This document shows positions 1,874 through 64,000 of a stretch of 64,000 nucleotides of DNA, one piece after another. The DNA comes from Streptomyces sp. KMM 9044. GTDB taxonomy: Bacteria > Actinomycetota > Actinomycetes > Streptomycetales > Streptomycetaceae. Under the pieces are notes generated by a model. The model was not told the DNA's origin and searched no databases. It saw nothing but the letters and a program-made list of their open reading frames with translations. The DNA lies in the NCBI RefSeq assembly GCF_024701375.2, contig NZ_CP113910.1:6634001-6698000 (forward strand), in the 5' to 3' direction. The stretch's first letter is position 1. Each line of letters opens with the position of its first letter. The position numbers were made by a program, and so were the translations under genes.

Positions 1874-4800
1874 ATGTCCACCTCCGAAGAGCGTGTCGTC
1901 GCCGCGCTGCGCGCGTCCCTGACCGAGAACGAGCGCCTGCGCCGGCACAACGACGAACTCGTGCGGACGGCGACCGAACCGATTGCCATCATCGGCATGG
2001 CCTGTCGCTTTCCCGGCGACGTCACCACCCCGGAACAGCTGTGGGACCTGGTCGCGGCCGGCGCCGACGCCGTCACGCCCTTCCCTGCGGATCGAGGCTG
2101 GGACACGACCGGTGACGCGTCCACGGCCACCACACACCAGGGCGGATTCGTCACCACGGCCGCCGATTTCGACGCGGGCTTCTTCGGGGTGTCGCCGCGT
2201 GAGGCGCTGGCGATGGACCCCCAACAGCGCCTGATCCTGGAAACGTCCTGGGAGGCCCTGGAACACGCGGGCCTGGCTCCCACCTCCGTGCGCGGCAGCC
2301 GCACCGGCGTCTACGTCGGCTGCAGCAACCAGAACTACGGCGCCGTCTCCGGCGACGACCTGCCCGAAGGCATCGGGGGCCATCTGCTCACCGGCAACGC
2401 GGCGAGTGTGGTGTCGGGGCGGGTGTCGTACGTCCTGGGGGTGGAGGGTCCCGCGGTGACGGTCGACACCGCCTGCTCGTCCTCGCTGGTGGCCCTGCAT
2501 CTGGCCGTACAGGCCCTGCGAGCCGGAGAGTGCGACCTCGCCCTCGCCGGCGGCGTCACGGTCATGTCCACACCAGCTGCTTTTGCCGAGTTCAGTCGTC
2601 AGGGGGGTCTGGCGGGTGACGGTCGGTGCAAGGCGTTCGCGGATGCGGCGGACGGGACGGGGTGGGGTGAGGGTGCGGGTGTGCTGCTGGTGGAGCGGTT
2701 GTCGGATGCGCGCCGTCATGGGCGTCGGGTTCTTGCGGTGGTGCGTGGTTCGGCGGTCAATCAGGACGGTGCGTCGAACGGGCTGACGGCGCCGAACGGT
2801 CCGGCTCAGCAGCGGGTGATTCGTGCTGCGTTGGCGGGTGCGGGGGTGTCGGCGTCCGAGGTTGATGTGGTGGAGGCGCACGGTACGGGGACGCGGTTGG
2901 GTGATCCGATCGAGGCGCAGGCGTTGCTGGCGACGTACGGCCGGGAGCGGGTCGAGGGCCGGCCGTTGTGGCTGGGTTCGGTGAAGTCGAATGTGGGTCA
3001 TACGCAGGCGGCTGCGGGTGTGGCCGGTGTGATCAAGATGGTGCTGGCGTTGCGGCACGGTGTGGTGCCGGCGACGTTGCATGTGGATGCGCCGTCGTCG
3101 CAGGTCGACTGGGCGTCGGGCTCGGTACGACTGCCGACCGAACAGCAGCCATGGCCCGACACCGGCCGTCCGCGCGTGGCAGGTGTCTCGGCCTTCGGGG
3201 TCAGTGGCACCAACGCCCACGCGATCCTGGAACAATCCCCCCTTCCGGAAGTGCCAGATGAGCCTCTGGTCGCTCCCGCGGATTCCGCACCCCTCGTATG
3301 GCCGTTGTCCGGCCGCACCGAGGACGCCCTGCGTGCCCAAGCCCGCGCCCTTGCGGCCTTCGCCGACCGACACCCCGAGGCCGCCCCGAACCGGACCGGT
3401 CTCGCCCTCGCGACGACACGCACACACTTCGAGCATCGGGCGGTCGTTGTCACTGACGATCCCACTCGCCTCACCGAAGCACTGAACGGTCTCGCCGACA
3501 GCGTCACCTCGGCAGACACCATGGTCGGCCAGGACCGCGGAGAGTCACGACAAGCGTTCTTGTTCTCGGGGCAGGGTGCGCAGCGGCCGGGGATGGGCCG
3601 GGAGTTGTATGAGGCGTTTCCTGTCTTTGCGGATGCTTTCGACGCGGTGTGTGGGTTTGTCGGTTCCGGGTTGCGGGATGTGGTGTTCGGCGGGGGTGCC
3701 GGGCGGTTGGGTCGTACGGAGTGGACGCAGCCGGCGTTGTTCGCGGTCGAGGTGGCTCTGTTCCGGTTGGTGGAGTCGTTCGGGGTGCGTGCGGATTTCG
3801 TCATCGGTCATTCGGTCGGTGAGATTGCCGCGGCGCATGTGGCGGGGGTGTTGTCGCTGGAGGATGCGTGTGCTCTGGTGGTGGCGCGTGGCCGGTTGAT
3901 GCAGGAGTTGCCCTCGGGTGGGGCGATGGTGGCGGTGGAGGCGGCCGAGGACGAGGTTGTCCCGTTGCTGGACGCGGCGTTGGTGTCGGTCGCGGCGGTG
4001 AACGGTCCGCGGTCGGTGGTGATCGCCGGTGTCGAGGCGGCTGTCACGGAGGTTGCGGAGAAGCTGAAGGCGCGGGGTCGGCGCACGTCCCGTCTGCGGG
4101 TGTCGCACGCGTTCCACTCGCCGTTGATGGAGCCGATGCTCGGCGCGTTCCGTGAGGTGGCGGAGCGGATCGGCTACGGAACCCCTGTCATTCCCGTGGT
4201 GTCGAACGTGACCGGACGCCTCGCCACCGACGGTGACCTGACGTCGGCCGAGTACTGGGTGCGTCATGTCCGTCAGGCGGTCCGGTTCGCCGACGGTGTG
4301 AGTGCTCTGGCGGCCGAGGGCGTGACGCGGTTCCTGGAGATCGGCCCCGACGGCACTCTCACCGCCCTCGCCCGGGACTGCGTACCGGACCACACCGACG
4401 ACGCGCTCTTCGTCCCGCTGCTCCGCAAGGATGCCTCCGAGCACACGGCCGTGCTGCGGGCGATGGCCCGCTTCCACGTCGACGGCGGAGAGGTCGACTG
4501 GAATGTCCTGCTCGGCAGCGGCGACGGTGCCCCGGCGGTGGACCTGCCCACCTACCCGTTCCAACGCCAACGCTACTGGCTCGCCCCGAACCAGTCGGCG
4601 CCCGGTGTCCCGGCCGGCCCCGCGCACGCCTCCGCGGTGATCGACGACGCATTCTGGGCCGCTGTCGAGTGCGAGGACCTTCCCGCGCTGGCGGCGGATC
4701 TCGACCTCGCACCGGACATCCTCGGCCCGGTGGTTCCGGCCCTCTCGAAGTGGTACAGGCAGCGACAGGACCAGGCCATGGTCGACGCGCTGCGGTACGA

Positions 4801-47590: not shown

Positions 47591-48380
47591 GGTGCAGGAG
47601 GTGGTCCCGATCAACACGACCAACGTGACCGCGCAGCACACCCGCTTGATCAACGCTCTGGGTGCCGGGGACTCTTCGGTCCGGCTTCAGGCGGCCCTGG
47701 CGGCCGGCTCGAACCCCGACCCCGTCTTCCTGGAGACCCTCGTCGAGCGGTGCGCGGTCGAGCCCGACTTCTTCGTGCGAGACATGCTCTCCTGGGCGCT
47801 GATCCGCCTCTCGCCGGAGATCACCCTGCCCCGCATCCGCAAGGAGCTGGACTCCGAGCGCAATCAGGCCCGCAGTCAGGCGCTGCACACGCTGTCCAAG
47901 ATCAACGACAAGAGCACATGGGCCTGGATCACCCGCGACATGCCGCGCGACGCCGACGACGAGGTCGCACGGACCGCGTGGCGCGTGGCGGTCGTCCTCG
48001 TACCGGAGGACGAGAGGAAGGCCCTGGCCGAGGAGTTGGTCCTGCAACTCGGCCGCGGCGACCGCAGCGTGCAGCTGAGCTTGAGCCGGGCCTTCGTCGA
48101 CCTCGGTGAGGTGATCAAGCCCGTCCTGGAGAAGGCCGCAACCCACCCGGACCCGGACGTGGCGGCGCACGCCCGTGCCACCGAACTGCTCCGCAAGAAC
48201 CCGGAGACCGGCTTCGACGCGGCGATCGAAGAGGCGAAGCGCATGGTCAGGCTCGGCCCGGACCGCGCGGCCGAGGCCGAGGCGGCCATCCGGGCGGGGG
48301 AGACCCCGGAGTCCGCGGCGGCGGCCGAGCAGACCGAGCCGGCCGAGCAGACCCGGGCCGCCGAGTCCGCTGAGAACTAG
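47589..48380 (+). CDS. HEAT-repeat protein
   Basis: This protein of up to 263 residues is built of short paired helices (LQAALAAGSNPDPVFLETLV, VRDMLSWALIRLSPEITLPR, AGDxxVxxxLSRAFVDLGEV type), which is a HEAT/PBS-lyase repeat fold used for protein binding. An Ala/Glu-rich tail follows. The exact start is uncertain: the strong AGGAGG lies inside the first codons of the open frame. The stop TAG is part of the CTAG target of the next IS element, so the insertion left the protein unchanged. Confidence 0.75.
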   Translation: MVQEVVPINTTNVTAQHTRLINALGAGDSSVRLQAALAAGSNPDPVFLETLVERCAVEPDFFVRDMLSWALIRLSPEITLPRIRKELDSERNQARSQALHTLSKINDKSTWAWITRDMPRDADDEVARTAWRVAVVLVPEDERKALAEELVLQLGRGDRSVQLSLSRAFVDLGEVIKPVLEKAATHPDPDVAAHARATELLRKNPETGFDAAIEEAKRMVRLGPDRAAEAEAAIRAGETPESAAAAEQTEPAEQTRAAESAEN

Positions 48381-49474
48381 GTCCTGTCTGAGATTCAGAT
48401 CATGAGTTAGGTGGATCGCCTGCGCGCGGAGGCTCGGTCTTGATAGGTCATGAGTCATGGCGCGAGGCGATCTCACCGATGAGCAGTGGTCCCTGGTTGA
48501 ACCCCATCTCCCGTATGCCGCGGTCGGGCCCATCCCTGATCTGCGAAAGTACTTCAACGCGGCGATGTGGCGGTTCCGCACCGGGGCTCCCTGGCGTGAT
48601 CTGCCGACCGAGTTTGGGCCCTGGCAGAGTGCGTACGACCGCTTCCGGATCTGGGCGAAGCGGGGCATCTTCCAGCAGGTGATGGAAGCGATGATCGCCG
48701 AGGCTGCCGCCCGTGACCAGGTTGACATGGGTCTGGTCAGCGTGGACTCGGCAACCTCCCGCGCTCACCACCATGCCGCCGGGATGGTCCTCGATCCCGA
48801 GCAGCCGGCGGCCCTTGAGGCCGCCGCCGAAGCGGAAAAGGGGGCGGCAAGGAGGGACAACAGCCGCAGGACGGACAAGGTGATGCCCAAGGCGAAGACG
48901 AGGCACGCACCGAGCGGCGACGGATCCGCAGACGGCGCCGGGCCCGGTTGAAAGCCGCTGAACTGGGACGTTCCCGAGGCGGGCTGACCAGCAAGATCCA
49001 TGTTGCGGCCGATCGCCGGTGCCGGCCGCTGGTGTTCGTCCTCACCCCTGGACAGGCGGGTGACAGCCCGCAGTTCACCGCGGTCCTCAAGCGGATTAAG
49101 GTCCGCGGCCCCGTCGGACGCCCCCGGACCCGGCCGGACGCCGTGGCCGGGGACAAGGCGTACTCCTCCCGGAAGAACCGCCGCTACCTACGCATACGCG
49201 GGATCAAGGCGGTCATTCCGGAGAAGGCCGACCAAGCCGCGAACCGCAAGAAGCGCGGCAGCGCCGGCGGCCGACCCATCTCCCACGACGCCGAGCTGTA
49301 CAAGGACCGCAACACCGTGGAGCGCTGTATCAACCGGCTCCGCAACTGGCGTGGCATCGCCACCCGCTATGACAAAACCCCGCAGAGCTACGAAGCCGGA
49401 CTCCATCTCTGCGGCGCGATGCTCTGGATCCGCAGCATCACACCGCACTCATGATCCGAATCCCAGACAGGACC
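48380..49474 (+). mobile_element. IS5-family (IS427 type) insertion sequence
   Basis: The element is 1095 bp with near-perfect inverted repeats beginning GGTCCTGTCTGRGATTCRGA (R = A/G difference between ends). TA is duplicated on both sides within CTAG (48377-48380 and 49474-49477). A truncated second copy of the same type lies at 61225. Confidence 0.9.
48457..49454 (+). CDS. IS5-family transposase in two overlapping frames
   Basis: ORF A (48457-48951) carries DLTDEQWSLVEPHLPYA and the first Asp (GLVSVDSATSRAHHH). ORF B (48948-49454) is in the -1 frame and carries LTSKIHVAADRRCRPL, AVAGDKAYSSRKNRRYLRIR (second Asp) and ELYKDRNTVERCINRLRNWR (Glu). A -1 ribosomal frameshift joining them is normal for this IS group. 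AAAAGGGGG near 48837 is a possible slip site. The element looks complete and may be active. Confidence 0.88.
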
Positions 49475-58616: not shown

Positions 58617-59096
58617 TCAGGAGGAGGGGCTGTAGTTGCCCGGGGCGCGCCGCTGGGCGATCGCGAGCCGGTTGTAACTGTTGATCGCCACGATGACGAA
58701 CAGCAGGTGGGAGAGCTGCTCGTTGCCGAAGACCTTCTGTGTGCGCTGGAAGACGTCGTCCGGGATGTGACCGTCGTGGACGAGCGTGACGGCCTCGGTG
58801 AACTCCAGGGCGGCGCGCTCGCGTTCGGTGAAGAAGGGCGTCTCCTCCCACGCGCTGAGGGCGTAGATGCGCTGCTCCGTCTCGCCGGCGTTGCGCGCGT
58901 CGATGCTGTGCATGTCGATGCAGAAGGCGCAACCGTTGATCTGCGACGCGCGAATGCGGACGAGCTCGAGCAGCGCACTCTCCAGACCGGCCTGCTGGGC
59001 GGACTGAGCGGCCGTGGAGGCCAGGCGGTGCATGGCGGAGTAGGTGCGCTCGGAATGCGCGTTGCAATCCAGGCGCTGGCTGTTCTCGGTGGTCAT
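58617..59096 (-). CDS. Carboxymuconolactone decarboxylase/AhpD-like protein
   Basis: This 159-residue protein has the AhpD redox motif INGCAFCIDMHSIDA (CxxC followed by His), so it is more likely a peroxide-defence or thiol-redox protein than a decarboxylase. The C-terminal half (NEQLSHLLFVIVAINSYNRL) is also typical. The ATG at 59096 (MTTENSQRLDC) is the best start; the frame continues upstream without support. It is on the same strand as the FAD monooxygenase pair. Confidence 0.88.
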   Translation of the reverse strand: MTTENSQRLDCNAHSERTYSAMHRLASTAAQSAQQAGLESALLELVRIRASQINGCAFCIDMHSIDARNAGETEQRIYALSAWEETPFFTERERAALEFTEAVTLVHDGHIPDDVFQRTQKVFGNEQLSHLLFVIVAINSYNRLAIAQRRAPGNYSPSS

Positions 59097-59469
59097 AGCC
59101 GGGATCGTAGGAGCGGCTGTGATCGGGTGGCCAGTGCTCGCCTCCTGCAGTTGAACAGTCGGTTGTTCGCCATTTGACGCTTGACAGAAAGGTGTCTCAC
59201 AGAAAAGGTAAATCGCGAGCAGGGCGGGGAGGCAGAACGCTGGCACGCCGCTTGCCTGTCTCAAGGGTCCGCTGCGCCCGCTCCCGGTTCCGCTGCGCCC
59301 GCCGGCAGGGCGATTCCCCCGACATCACCGACTCGTACCTCCTGTATCCGGCGCCGCGCCGCGCCCAGTACCCGTACGCCCGGCGCCTGGTGGCGCCGAC
59401 CTGACGAAATGGCTGGACGTACATGACTGACCTGGCAAACGACCAGGGCTTGATCAAGTTCCGTGACTA
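59097..59469. other. Intergenic region, no clear gene
   Basis: Nothing clear is coded here. It should hold the promoter of the AhpD-like gene (near 59100-59200). A plus-strand frame ending DSYLLYPAPRRAQYPYARRL VAPT has no recognised family. Confidence 0.45.
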
Positions 59470-59615
59470 GCTGTTTCTCAACCGTCGGGTGTTCGATGGG
59501 GTCCCGTACGGTGTCCTGGATCAGGTGACGGAGTCCGGGAGTGGGCATGAGGACGGGGCCCTGTTCATAGCGTGTCGGTTGTCTAAGCCAGCCACGCGAG
59601 GAACAAAGCCCCGTC

Positions 59616-60562
59616 ATGCAGAACGCTACCGTCGTCCTGTCCGATCGTCCGTTGCCCGACCTGCGGTTCGCCGCGGAGTGTGACTGCCTCGCTCACTTGT
59701 ACGGCAATGCCGGGGACCGGCCGCTGCGGGCCCGCGTCTACGCGACCGATCTGACGGACGAGGAATGGCAGATCGTCCGGCGGGTGATGCCTGTGCCGGG
59801 CTGGCTATGTGGCCGCGGGGGCAACCCGGAGGGTTTCTGCCACCGCGAAATGATCGATGCGGTGCGGTACTTCGTCGACAACGGCATCAAGTGGAGGGCG
59901 ATGCCGGCCGACTTCCCGCCCTGGTCGGCCGTCTACGCATTCCAGCATCGCTGGCACACGGACGAGCTCCTGGACGTACTGCACGAGAGGCTGCGGGAGC
60001 AGGTACGCATCGTGGAAGGGCGGGACGATCCCGAGCCGAGTGCGGCGATCGTCGATTCCCAGTCCCTGCGCGGCGCCTCCACCCTGACCGGGGAGCGGCG
60101 CGGGTACGACGGGGCGAAGAAGGTGTCGGGTTCCAAGCGTCACATCGCCGTGGACTGTCTGGGTCTGCTGCTGGTGGTGATGGTCACCGCCGCGGACCTG
60201 CAGGACCGCGACGCGGGTGTGGCCCTCCTGGAACGGGTGCGTTCCCTTTTCACGCGGGTGCGTCTGGTGTGGGCCGACAGCGGCTATGCGGCGCCCTGGT
60301 GGATTGGGCCCTGCACGCCCTCGGCATGAAGGTCGAGGTGTCCCGCCGCGACGACAGAGCTGGCTTCGTGGTGATCCCGAGACGTTGGGTGGTCGAGCGC
60401 ACGTTCGCCTGGCTGGTGAACTGCCGTCGCCTGGTGCGTGATTACGAGCGCACCGCCGCCGCCCACGAGAGCTACGTGAGGTGGGCCATGGTCACCCTCA
60501 TGACCCGCCGCCTGGCCGCCGCGGACCACGAGGCGGCCGCCGGACGGGCCCGGCCGGTGTGA
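59616..60562 (+). pseudogene. IS5-family transposase, frameshifted
   Basis: The protein (about 315 residues if repaired) has [38 protein letters not shown] (first Asp), [20 protein letters not shown] and [11 protein letters not shown] (second Asp). One base is missing near 60297, and the other frame continues as [40 protein letters not shown] (Glu) to the end. Adding one C in GCGCCCTGG restores it. Confidence 0.85.
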
Positions 60563-60569
60563 GCGCCCG

Positions 60570-61112
60570 TCATCCTGCCGCGGTGAACTCCCGGCCGTCG
60601 GCGCTGGTCAGCCAGTCCCGCTGGACGAGCCGCTTGAGCTGACAGCGCACACCCTCCTGCCGACTGCGGCCGGCCCCCTCACCGAACAATGCCTGGGCCA
60701 CCTCCCGAGCCCGCACCGGTTCCCGCGCTTCCCTCACGAACTCGACGATCTTCGAGTAGAGGCCGGGCAGCCTGCTGGGATCGGAGTCCTCCTGCCGTTG
60801 CGGCACATACCGCGACTCACCTCCGGCTCCGGTTCCAGCGTCGGCACCTGCGCCGGCAGGGCTCTCCACCTCCGCGTCGGCCGGCGCCTCCCTGTTGTCG
60901 GACGGGCTGCGGGAAACAGCAGCCTCACCGGCATCACCGCGCAGTTCCTGTTCGACCTCGTCCCAGATCTCGCTGCCGATACGCCGGCGGGCGATCTCCC
61001 TGTCCACCTGGGCCGCTTCCTCCTCCAGAGCGGTGATCCGCTGCCGGAGCCCGACGGCACGGGCTTCGAAGGCGCGCAGTCGGCGCGTCATGACAGCGGC
61101 GGGCGTGGGCAC
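60570..61112 (-). CDS. IS passenger gene: coiled-coil and winged-helix-like protein
   Basis: This 180-residue protein starts at GTG 61112 with GGAGG 7 bases upstream. The N-terminal part is a coiled coil (RLRAFEARAVGLRQRITALE EEAAQVDREIARRR). The middle is an Ala/Gly/Glu-rich linker. The C-terminal part (LPGLYSKIVEFVREAREPVR AREVAQALFG ... LKRLVQRDWL) looks like a winged helix. It converges with the transposase gene (8-bp gap) inside the same inverted repeats. Its role is unknown; control of transposition or of a host gene are both possible. Confidence 0.7.
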   Translation of the reverse strand: MPTPAAVMTRRLRAFEARAVGLRQRITALEEEAAQVDREIARRRIGSEIWDEVEQELRGDAGEAAVSRSPSDNREAPADAEVESPAGAGADAGTGAGGESRYVPQRQEDSDPSRLPGLYSKIVEFVREAREPVRAREVAQALFGEGAGRSRQEGVRCQLKRLVQRDWLTSADGREFTAAG

Positions 61113-61224
61113 AGCAGAACCTCCGGGCTCGGCAACGAAGACACCACCACCCTGCACACCCGCCCACGAAGATCACAAACCGCAAACATGCAGCTCAGAC
61201 ACCTGATCGGTTGAGAAACAGCTA

Positions 61225-61541
61225 GGTCCTGTCTGGGATTCCGATCATGAGTGCGGTGTGATGCTGCGGATCCAGAGCATCGCGCCGCAGAGATGGAGTC
61301 CGGCTTCGTAGCTCTGCGGGGTTTTGTCATAGCGGGTGGCGATGCCACGCCAGTTGCGGAGCCGGTTGATACAGCGCTCCACGGTGTTGCGGTCCTTGTA
61401 CAGCTCGGCGTCGTGGGAGATGGGTCGGCCGCCGGCGCTGCCGCGCTTCTTGCGGTTCGCGGCTTGGTCGGCCTTCTCCGGAATGACCGCCTTGATCCCG
61501 CGTATGCGTAGGTAGCGGCGGTTCTTCCGGGAGGAGTACGC
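61225..61541 (-). mobile_element. Truncated IS5 (IS427 type) copy
   Basis: From the inverted repeat GGTCCTGTCTGGGATTC inward, the sequence matches the C-terminal third of the 48380-49474 element in reverse orientation (AYSSRKNRRYLRIRGIKAVI ... RNWRGIATRYDKTPQSYEAG). It ends at AYSS, where the IS3 fragment begins. Confidence 0.88.
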
Positions 61542-61778
61542 GGGGCTTGACCCCGGATCGTGGACACCGTTTGCTATGCAGCAGTGGCCAGCGTAATCGA
61601 TCGTTGTTCGTAGGTGATCGGGCTGATCTGGCCGAGTGCGGAGTGTCTTCTTTTCGTGTTGTAGCGAGTGACCCACCGGAACACCGCGAGGCGGGCCTCG
61701 CGCGCCCCTGACCAGCGTTTCCTTCTCTGCAAGGTCTCCCGTTTCAGGCTTGCGTTGAAGGATTCGGCGGCGGCGTTG
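61542..61778 (-). mobile_element. IS3 orfB fragment, interrupted by a group II intron
   Basis: The minus strand carries the IS3 end (GGGCTTGACCCCGGATCG) and the last 55 or so codons of an OrfB (NAAAESFNASLKRETLQRRK ... ALGQISPITYEQRSITLATAA). It is related to but different from the 51060 element. It breaks off in the DDE Glu motif region, where the intron begins. Confidence 0.85.
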
Positions 61779-62999
61779 GTGTGTCCAGAAGGTGATTGTG
61801 AGGTTCTGATGTAGAAGACGGGAACGAACAGTTGCCATGCTGTTGTGGAGATGAAGGTAGGTCCTTCGGCATCGGCATGCAGGTGCAGGTGTCAAACCAC
61901 CATGAGCTGCTGCGGTGAATGAGCCGTGGTGGTGAGCGTCATGGAAAAGCCGTACTAAATATGGCAGGTGTGGGCTGAGAAGGCGAACGCAAGTGAACCG
62001 CCGATGACGTGTCGTAAAGCTTAGACGACATCAAAACCAGGGCCTCAATGCTGTCCTGGGACAAGCCAGACGGGAACCTGTTTACTGGTCTGGCGGTGTC
62101 CGGCATGAAGGTGGCGCGAGCTCAGTCTGGGCTTCACAACGGAACTGGAGAACTCCTCGACGCGAAACCGCGATCCATGGGTTGACGTGGCTCGCGAGAG
62201 GGAGAGGCGCAAGTGGCGAAGAGTCATGAGGGCCGGAGTACCGGTCGCGCGTCGGGAGGGCGGAACGTCCCGTAGTAGTGATGAAACCTCCGTAATAGGG
62301 GTGGAGCGAAGGGGACGTGTTGTTGGGTGTCGATCGGCGATCAACCAGCGATGGGAGGAATCGGATGGTCGAGACAAGGCCAGCGGACAAGCCGTTTGAT
62401 ATTCCGAGGCGGCTGGTCTGGAACGCATACCTGAAGGTCAAGGCCAACAGGGGAGCGGCTGGGGTGGATGGGCAGTCTTTAGCGGAGTTTGAGCAGGATG
62501 AGAAGAACAACCTGTACAAGCTGTGGAACCGGCTGTCCTCGGGAAGCTACTTCCCTCCACCCGTGAGAGCGGTTGATATTCCCAAAGCCGGCGGTGGGAT
62601 TCGGAGCCTTGGGGTTCCGACCGTGGCCGACAGGATCGCCCAGACGGTAGTGGCTATGACATTGGAGCCTGAGGTGGAGCAGATCTTCCATCAGGACTCG
62701 TATGGCTACCGCCCGAGGCGGTCCGCGCTGGATGCGGTGGAGACGTGCAAGCAGCGGTGCTGGAGGCATCCTTGGGTGATCGACCTTGACATCCAGGGCT
62801 TCTTCGACAACGTGCCGCACGGCCCCATCAACGCGGCAGTGGAAAGGCATACCAATCTTCCGTGGGTTCTGCTGTATGTGAAACGGTGGCTAGTCGCCCC
62901 CGTACAACAGCCCGACGGAACGCTCGTCAGGCGGGAAAAGGGGACTCCCCAAGGGTCTGCTATTTCACCATTGTTGTCGAATCTGTTCATGCACTGAGT
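61779..62999 (+). mobile_element. Group II intron, 3' part lost
   Basis: The stretch begins GTGTGTCC, which fits the group II 5' consensus GTGYG, and splits an IS3 orfB codon pair (GAC-AAC). About 590 bases of structured non-coding RNA precede the reverse transcriptase ORF. The domain V/VI end is missing because an IS starts at 63000, so it cannot splice. Confidence 0.8.
62365..62996 (+). pseudogene. Group II intron reverse transcriptase, truncated
   Basis: The LtrA-like protein starts MVETRPADKPFDIPRRLVWN with GGGAGG upstream. It shows RT blocks: NRGAAGVDGQSLAEFEQ, AGGGIRSLGVPTVADRIAQT, YGYRPRRSALDAVETCK, VIDLDIQGFFDNVPH and KGTPQGSAISPLLSNLFMH. It stops there, just before the YADD-type catalytic block, at the junction with the next IS. 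About half of the protein, including the maturase domain, is missing. Confidence 0.9.
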
Positions 63000-64000
63000 C
63001 TTTCCCGGTAAGCGCCCGTCGCTCGCTGTGATCGCGAAGCTGACGCTGCGGCCCGTGCGGTCCCCAAGTCGGGGCAGACGTAAGGCCCCTGGTAGAAACG
63101 ATCTTGCGACAAATTGTTCTGACCGAGGGGCCTCACGTGTCGACCAGTGTCACATATACCGCGGTGCTCGATGTGAAGCGGTCCACCGCCGAGCACCTGG
63201 CCCGGTTGCTGCGCGATCACCGCATCGCGGCCGGAACCCGCAAGGGCAGGCGTGCGCTGGGCTGCTTCCGCCAGGCGGTGTTCGTCCTGCGCTGGTTCAT
63301 CGACGGCACCCGCCTTTCCCAACTTGCCTGCGACAACGGCCTGTCGGCCTCCACCGCCTACCGCTACCTCCACGAGGGGCTGACTGTTCTGGCGGCTGGG
63401 GCACCGGACCTCGCGACCGCGCTGGAGCGCGCGAAGGCGGCCGGGCTGACGCACCTGAACCTGGACGGCACCGTCATCCGCACCGACCGCGTCGCCGCCC
63501 CCGGCCCCAACGGCGCAGACCTCTGGTGGTCCGGCAAACACAAGCACCATGGAGGGAACGTGCAGGTCATCGCCACCCCGGACGGCTGGCCGATCTGGGT
63601 CTCACCGGTCCGCCCGGGCAGGGAGCACGACACCACCTGCGCCCGCCACCACGGCCTGGTCGACGCCCTCAACCGGATCGCCGCCGAACTGGACATGCCG
63701 ACCCTCGTCGACCTCGGCTACGAGAACGCCGGCGACGGCTTCCGCCACCCGCACAAGAAGCCCGCCGGAGGCGAGCTGACCGAGGCCCAGCAGACCTACA
63801 ACAAGGTCATCCGCGGCATCCACGGCGTCTGCGAGCGCGCCAACTCCCTGCTCAAGACCACCTTCAAGGCCCTACGCCGGGTCAGCCTCGACCCCAGCCG
63901 CATCACGAAGATCGCCGCAGCAGCCCTCGTCCTGCTCCAGTTCGAATACGACCGCACCATCTGAACGATCACACAACGTCATGATTCATTACTGGGAAAG
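63000..64000 (+). mobile_element. IS5-like insertion sequence at the window end
   Basis: The ends are CTTTCCCGGTAA (63000) and the inverse of CTTTCCCAGTAA at 63989-64000. The right end coincides with the window end, so the target duplication cannot be read. It truncates the intron reverse transcriptase. Confidence 0.8.
63137..63964 (+). CDS. IS5/DDE_Tnp_4-type transposase
   Basis: This transposase of about 275 residues begins with GTG 63137 (MSTSVTYTAVLDVKRSTAEH). It has a helix-turn-helix (LSQLACDNGLSASTAYRYLH) and a catalytic core: THLNLDGTVIRTDRVAAPGP (Asp), PTLVDLGYENAGDGFRHPHK (Asp) and GIHGVCERANSLLKTTFKAL (Glu). The copy is intact. Confidence 0.88.
   Translation: MSTSVTYTAVLDVKRSTAEHLARLLRDHRIAAGTRKGRRALGCFRQAVFVLRWFIDGTRLSQLACDNGLSASTAYRYLHEGLTVLAAGAPDLATALERAKAAGLTHLNLDGTVIRTDRVAAPGPNGADLWWSGKHKHHGGNVQVIATPDGWPIWVSPVRPGREHDTTCARHHGLVDALNRIAAELDMPTLVDLGYENAGDGFRHPHKKPAGGELTEAQQTYNKVIRGIHGVCERANSLLKTTFKALRRVSLDPSRITKIAAAALVLLQFEYDRTI

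What the first reader, a model, noticed from the sequence alone, without database searches (positions are those of the whole stretch)
59470..61222. IS5-family element that carries an opposite-strand DNA-binding-like gene
Perfect inverted repeats and TA target duplication enclose both a broken transposase and a complete 180-residue gene with coiled coil and winged-helix-like ends. Passenger genes are unusual in IS5 elements. It could regulate transposition or give a host benefit that keeps the element.
Basis: partly seen in the sequence, partly recalled or inferred. Interest (0 to 1): 0.7.

Follow-up and report, generated by a model that had tools for sequence, protein, structure and literature searches.

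The report
Transposon family's built-in DNA-binding partner gene
A jumping DNA element in a Streptomyces chromosome carries, on its opposite strand, a gene for a DNA-binding-type protein that is a regular part of a whole branch of such elements and is shared with other transposon families, so it probably helps control how they jump rather than serving the host.

Summary
The element is 59467-61225: perfect 18-bp inverted repeats, a frameshifted IS5-type transposase and an open 180-codon opposite-strand gene (60570-61112). The "TA" duplication is wrong: six of seven other complete copies have matching TNA flanks; here the right flank is lost where another CTAG-targeting IS begins. The gene is not an accidental passenger. 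All seven complete copies found elsewhere carry it. Of 60 further fetched relatives 56 carry a convergent homologue, one a remnant, two end at contig edges, one lacks it; 0 of 25 sister-clade loci have it. It is under purifying selection (35 of 36 independent pairs dN/dS<1) and co-diverges with the transposase. Homologues are also the first gene of ISKra4-family and IS5_4-like elements and the second gene in another IS5 group, each with its usual orientation. Predicted structure: long helix plus winged helix with a conserved basic recognition helix; no curated family claims it. The clade also has a conserved hairpin over the transposase ribosome-binding site. Best reading: an element-encoded DNA-binding regulator or accessory factor of transposition. 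Distribution, linkage and selection are shown; the fold is predicted; activity and its sign are inferred.

The parts
59467..61225 (.). whole IS5-type element, 1759 bp
   Evidence: inverted repeats; seven 1763-bp copies elsewhere at 98.2-99.4% identity
59464..59466 (.). left flank TGA, probably the surviving half of a TNA target duplication
   Evidence: 6 of 7 other complete copies have matching TNA flanks
59467..59484 (+). left inverted repeat CTAGCTGTTTCTCAACCG
59552..59615 (+). leader hairpin that covers the transposase ribosome-binding site and ends at the base before its ATG
   Evidence: fold; 68 of 89 clade leaders; compensatory changes
59616..60329 (+). transposase, first open piece (DUF4096 and start of the DDE domain)
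60290..60562 (+). transposase, C-terminal part in another frame (approximate start)
   Evidence: intact copies exist in G316 and G379
60570..61112 (-). accessory gene, 180 codons, convergent with the transposase
60915..61103 (-). part coding the long N-terminal helix (residues 3-65), probable coiled coil
   Evidence: coiled-coil proteins top the sequence matches
60573..60782 (-). part coding the winged-helix domain (residues 110-179)
61208..61225 (-). right inverted repeat
61225..61895 (.). start of a different IS5-type element (its end GGTCCTGTCTGGGATTCCGA) that abuts and appears to disrupt the right end
   Evidence: (ORF 61245-61895 minus, NF033580 at 70.5 bits, below cut-off)

Best explanation
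The opposite-strand gene encodes a DNA-binding accessory protein of the element itself: probably a dimer, through the long N-terminal helix, of winged-helix domains that bind element DNA and adjust transposition, most likely holding it down by repressing transposase expression or occupying the ends. It would act beside two cis features of this IS5 sub-clade: a leader hairpin that covers the transposase ribosome-binding site, and convergent genes whose 3' ends usually overlap, so that read-through RNA of one is antisense to the other. Shown here: regular presence and orientation in the clade, co-divergence with the transposase, purifying selection, the hairpin with some compensatory changes, and the overlap. 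Predicted: the fold. Inferred: dimerisation, DNA binding, the target sites, antisense RNA, and that the effect is negative. The window copy has no intact transposase frame but keeps an open accessory gene.
For: Convergent gene in 29 of 30 and 56 of 60 clade loci against 0 of 25 sister-clade loci. Distances of transposase and accessory protein correlate over 83 elements, r 0.86, 0 of 999 permutations as high. dN/dS below 1 in 35 of 36 independent pairs, median 0.38. Winged helix with pLDDT about 90 and a basic, most conserved recognition helix; Arg155, Arg160, Arg164 in at least 74 of 78 sequences. Same protein family beside other transposase types. 3' overlap by open frames in 80 of 88 distinct elements, median 44 nt. 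Leader hairpin in 68 of 89 clade leaders.
Against: No activity was measured. No sequence motif shared by the two ends beyond the terminal repeat was found: mean 7.47 against 7.79 for mismatched pairs, so a common operator at both ends is not supported. The conserved recognition helix across elements with different ends argues against simple recognition of each element's own repeat. Foldseek gives no match at E 0.001 or better, and the fold is generic. The window-type pair itself has dN/dS 1.03 on few changes. One complete-looking relative, L150, lacks the gene.
Confidence: 0.5

Rival explanations
1. It is a positive accessory factor of transposition: the winged-helix dimer helps the transposase to find, bridge or load the ends or the target, and the element moves poorly without it.
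For: Same facts as for the regulator: close and regular linkage and co-divergence; conserved basic helix not tuned to each element's ends; it leads the transposase gene in ISKra4 elements, 20 of 20 over-cut-off loci in six genomes chosen for having hits.
Against: The sister transposase clade does without it (0 of 25), as does L150. An opposite-strand gene is an odd way to keep a helper in step with the transposase (inference).
Confidence: 0.27
2. It acts against other mobile DNA or selects targets, for example by binding a sequence common to many elements or to host promoters, so that the benefit to the element is indirect.
For: Recognition helix conserved across element types; the window genome also holds ISKra4 elements with a homologue.
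Against: No direct evidence; PADLOC gave only weak hits, each in one or two of 78 members.
Confidence: 0.13
3. It is cargo that benefits the host.
Against: Linked to transposases of several types in 132 of 140 frames; no plasmid or phage hit for the window protein at E 1e-5; no metabolic, resistance or defence family above a curated cut-off.
Confidence: 0.07
4. The open frame is a chance opposite-strand frame in GC-rich DNA or an unlinked neighbour.
For: GC-rich DNA has many long frames on both strands.
Against: Selection, profile similarity between groups at E 4e-15 to 2e-34, presence inside the repeats of copies at different places, a confident winged-helix model.
Confidence: 0.03

Closest known systems
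IS5 family, NCBIfam NF033580 (transpos_IS5_3)
   Same: The intact transposase scores 189.6 bits against a cut-off of 110; inverted repeats; short TNA duplication.
   Different: Has a second, convergent gene and a leader hairpin; the sister clade of the same model lacks the gene and, in 12 of 13 loci examined, a comparable hairpin.
ISKra4 family, NCBIfam NF033572
   Same: Its Streptomyces members here carry a full-length homologue of the accessory protein. Four ISKra4 elements with extra genes of unknown function are reported in PMC3942029 (section 11 read); whether any is this gene is not known.
   Different: Another transposase, other ends (GGGTG...), 8-9 bp flanking repeats in the copies seen, and the gene leads the transposase on the same strand.
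IS5_4-like group (NF033581 matched below its cut-off)
   Same: Accessory homologue beside a DDE transposase.
   Different: Gene leads the transposase on the same strand; different transposase.
MecI/BlaI-type winged-helix repressors
   Different: PF03965 at 13.1 bits, below its cut-off of 22.6; the long helix here is N-terminal, whereas those repressors dimerise through a C-terminal part (recalled).
IS493 of Streptomyces lividans (recalled, from no call)
   Same: I recall a 1.6-kb IS with a frame on the opposite strand reported in 1989.
   Different: Could not be compared: sequence and papers not available.
IS-encoded regulators and helpers such as IS1 InsA or the IS66 and IS21 accessory proteins (recalled)
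   Same: An IS that codes a second protein acting on its transposition.
   Different: No NCBIfam model of such a protein matches the window protein.

Membership tests
IS5 family (NF033580 type) | Transposase over the model's curated cut-off | tested here: met
   Intact copy L045 189.6 bits; window's first piece 128.4 bits; cut-off 110
IS5 family (NF033580 type) | Terminal inverted repeats with a short target duplication | tested here: met
   18-bp repeats; TNA in 6 of 7 other copies; in relatives 27 of 41 TNA-flanked pairs agree, 1 in 4 expected by chance
ISKra4 family | ISKra4 transposase | tested here: not met
   The window and L045 transposases gave no NF033572 match among the families listed
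Penicillinase repressor family (PF03965, MecI/BlaI) | Profile score over the gathering cut-off | tested here: not met
   13.1 bits against 22.6; 1 of 78 members at E below 0.01
Penicillinase repressor family (PF03965, MecI/BlaI) | Winged-helix fold | tested here: inconclusive
Known IS accessory proteins in NCBIfam (for example IS66 TnpA) | Match to the family's profile | tested here: not met
   0 families for the window protein at E up to 1
IS493-like elements | Sequence relation to IS493 and its opposite-strand frame | not testable with these tools
   Named sequence and papers not available; resemblance is recalled only

The most novel reading that the evidence does not exclude
One protein family is a transferable transposition-control module: it has been taken up by several DDE transposon lineages in actinobacteria, in three gene arrangements, and because its DNA-reading helix is conserved across them it may act in trans between element types, so that even dead copies such as the window's help to police the mobile elements of the genome.
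Probability: 0.15. Interest if true: 0.85.

Novelty: new variant of a known kind. Interest (0 to 1): 0.57.

Why it matters
Insertion sequences are usually drawn as a transposase between two repeats. Here an IS5 sub-clade common in Streptomyces regularly carries a second, selected gene together with an RNA hairpin over the transposase start, and the same protein recurs beside other transposase types. If it does control transposition, it is a ready system for asking how simple transposons limit themselves, and it identifies many 'hypothetical proteins' of Streptomyces as transposon components.

Tried and rejected
Chance neighbour: rejected by copies and relatives. Conserved programmed frameshift: rejected, since the seven other complete copies have one open transposase frame. 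Shared operator at the two ends: not found. Replacement of the window-type gene by one from another IS type: the protein tree puts the window type (with ten database proteins of unknown context) beside the IS5_4 group, while its transposase nests in the convergent clade; but one clade for all convergent genes is not rejected (p 0.108) and the branches are long, so I do not claim it. Defence families: nine PADLOC models matched one or two of 78 members weakly. Pfam: twelve models matched one to three of 78 members at E below 0.01, several of them helix-turn-helix models; none is taken as membership. Solved relatives by sequence: best E 0.0036, mostly coiled coils. Promoter scan: no sigma-70-type site, 0.0 expected by shuffling, so uninformative here. 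Phage and plasmid hits for the window protein: none at E 1e-5, although 302 Streptomyces plasmid records match its transposase and three that I opened have the convergent gene annotated 'hypothetical protein'. Literature: ten searches listed no paper whose title or abstract start describes this gene; papers other than PMC3942029 were seen as listings only, and PMC3942029 as passages and section 11. The library lacks most subscription papers, so this is weak evidence of absence.

Selection effects. The 60 loci were picked by me from the list, mostly one or two per genome. At least five of the 56 positives have the gene in two pieces (L125, L133, L143, L147, L170). One search dropped 4 elements without the anchor motif, and its ungapped scan missed the window's own hairpin, which folds. 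The leader alignment A2 holds 31 leaders that had passed the hairpin score plus two window-type ones, so it is biased towards pairing; compensatory changes are at 6 of 12 pairs, 4 of 12 without the two window-type rows. The 13 sister-clade leaders were scanned over a shorter region. The six genomes were chosen because they had accessory hits. The 59-row tree left out eight long or partial rows, unlabelled rows and near-duplicates after the quick 78-row tree had been seen; that earlier tree needed 13 changes over seven labels (least 6), or 7 changes with the unlabelled and divergent rows left out.

Full report
What is there. The element spans 59467-61225. Its ends, CTAGCTGTTTCTCAACCG, are perfectly complementary. 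Between them lie a leader, a transposase broken by a frameshift near 60.29 kb, and an open 180-codon gene on the other strand that starts about 110 bp inside the right end and stops a few bases beyond the transposase stop. The window lies in a 7.43-Mb genome. Its genus is inferred to be Streptomyces: in a same-genus genome, G316, the homologue lies on a contig with the same length and position as in Streptomyces sp. NBRC 110035.

Copies. In the same genome the DNA search found only fragments of this element besides the window copy: left ends of 587 and 418 bp, which run into a small element with GGGTGTGGCTC ends and an IS3-like element (identified by eye), and a right end of 104 bp at 80% identity; two more matches are transposases 65-66% identical. 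Elsewhere there are seven complete copies: one in G316 and six in G379, all 1763 bp, all with an open transposase frame and the accessory gene. Six of the seven have the same TNA triplet on both sides, the seventh has tca/tga. In the window the left flank is TGA and the right GTC. Another IS begins at 61225; its end sequences also occur at 48380-49474, flanked CTA and TAG, so it uses CTAG and seems to have entered this element's terminal CTAG.

The gene belongs to a clade. A search with an intact transposase gave hits in 375 of 384 same-genus genomes. Of its 30 fetched loci, three of which are the window's own element or its near copies, 29 have a homologue of the accessory gene 3' of the transposase on the opposite strand; the exception L062 is a truncated copy. 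Of 60 further listed places that I fetched, 56 have it, L141 has a remnant, L138 and L172 end at a contig edge, and L150 lacks it. In the neighbouring transposase clade 0 of 25 loci have it, while the five convergent-clade loci returned by the same search do. In a search with the NF033580 model in five genomes, 13 of the 30 fetched loci have it, each with a transposase score of at least 348 bits against L045's; none at 259 bits or below does. Ends flanked by TNA could be defined for 41 distinct elements, and 39 of them are 1580-1763 bp long with the gene inside; the flanking triplets agree in 27 of 41.

Selection and linkage. Over 83 elements transposase and accessory distances correlate at r 0.86, 0 of 999 permutations as high. 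Of 36 independent pairs 35 have dN/dS below 1, median 0.38, with the last part of the alignment, where the genes overlap, left out; the window-type pair gives 1.03 on few changes. Both parts of the protein are constrained, medians 0.39 and 0.36 over 319 non-independent pairs. In 80 of 88 distinct elements the convergent open frames overlap at their 3' ends, median 44 nt; a few large values come from extended frames. In the window they do not overlap.

Wider family. Profile searches show the protein, long helix and winged helix together, in other settings. It is the leading gene of ISKra4-family elements, followed on the same strand by the transposase: 20 of 20 fetched loci over the ISKra4 cut-off in six genomes chosen for having hits, and, in a draw of 150 genomes, 4 of 5 new over-cut-off loci, the fifth being a partial transposase; L302, which passes only as joined pieces, is not counted. 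It is the leading gene of an IS5_4-like group, and the second gene after the transposase in an IS5 group outside the family of the window's genome, with seven copies in G475. With the profile, 30 of 345 genomes drawn from the class have a match at E 1e-6, in 12 of 126 genera. Of 140 distinct frames, 97 are convergent with IS5_3-type transposases, 19 and 12 lead IS5_4-like and ISKra4 transposases, 4 follow an IS5_3-type one, 7 have no transposase found and 1 was labelled divergent, which one search shows to be convergent with a long overlapping frame. Profile comparisons between groups give E 4e-15 to 2e-34. In a selected 59-row tree each context forms one group, 5 changes, the least possible; a less selected 78-row tree needed 13 over more labels.

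Leader hairpin. In 68 of 89 clade leaders two arms (typically CAGGGCCTCCTG and CAGGAGGCCCTG) pair across the presumed ribosome-binding site of the transposase. The window's leader folds into the same kind of hairpin with internal loops, 59552-59615, -42.9 kcal/mol for the folded stretch, z -2.97. Six of 12 consensus pairs show compensatory changes, four without the two window-type rows. In 13 sister-clade loci only one comparable repeat was seen.

How it most likely works. Shown: the gene is a selected, regular part of the element. Predicted: the transposase start is masked by the hairpin and the protein is a winged helix. Inferred: the protein dimerises, binds element DNA, and lowers transposase expression or end activity. 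A positive helper is the main rival. Against the simplest repressor model stand the lack of a shared motif at the ends and a recognition helix conserved between elements with different ends; the latter leaves open an action across element types.

Known or new. Extra genes in IS elements are known in kind, and ISKra4 members with extra genes of unknown function were reported (PMC3942029, section 11). IS493 of S. lividans, recalled from memory only, may have shown an opposite-strand frame in 1989. None of the ten searches listed a description of this protein family or its spread over IS types; the library is incomplete. I therefore call it a new variant of a known kind: an IS with an accessory gene.

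Noticed in passing
L056-L058 (G284), e.g. L056:5221-5829 minus strand: This multi-copy ISKra4-family element also carries a gene that resembles chloramphenicol phosphotransferase CPT (86.1 bits, below the model's cut-off of 250).
   Followed up: no
L002, about 2088-2324: A small insertion with GGGTGTGGCTC-type inverted ends, like those of ISKra4 elements, interrupts the left-end fragment of this element: possibly a non-autonomous ISKra4 derivative (by eye).
   Followed up: no
window 61225-63984: Cluster of mobile remnants beside the element: an IS5-type fragment, a truncated group II intron reverse transcriptase (62317-62997, 266.3 bits, cut-off 300) and an IS5_4-like transposase at 63104-63964.
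   Followed up: partly
window 58617-59264 minus strand: Gene just left of the element matches the AhpD alkylhydroperoxidase core domain over its cut-off (59.5 bits, cut-off 27.8).
   Followed up: no
L210 (CP003277.1, pSHJG2) 2450-3860: A plasmid copy of the convergent pair is annotated 'Tn5741 family transposase' plus 'hypothetical protein'; no paper in the library holds the word Tn5741.
   Followed up: partly
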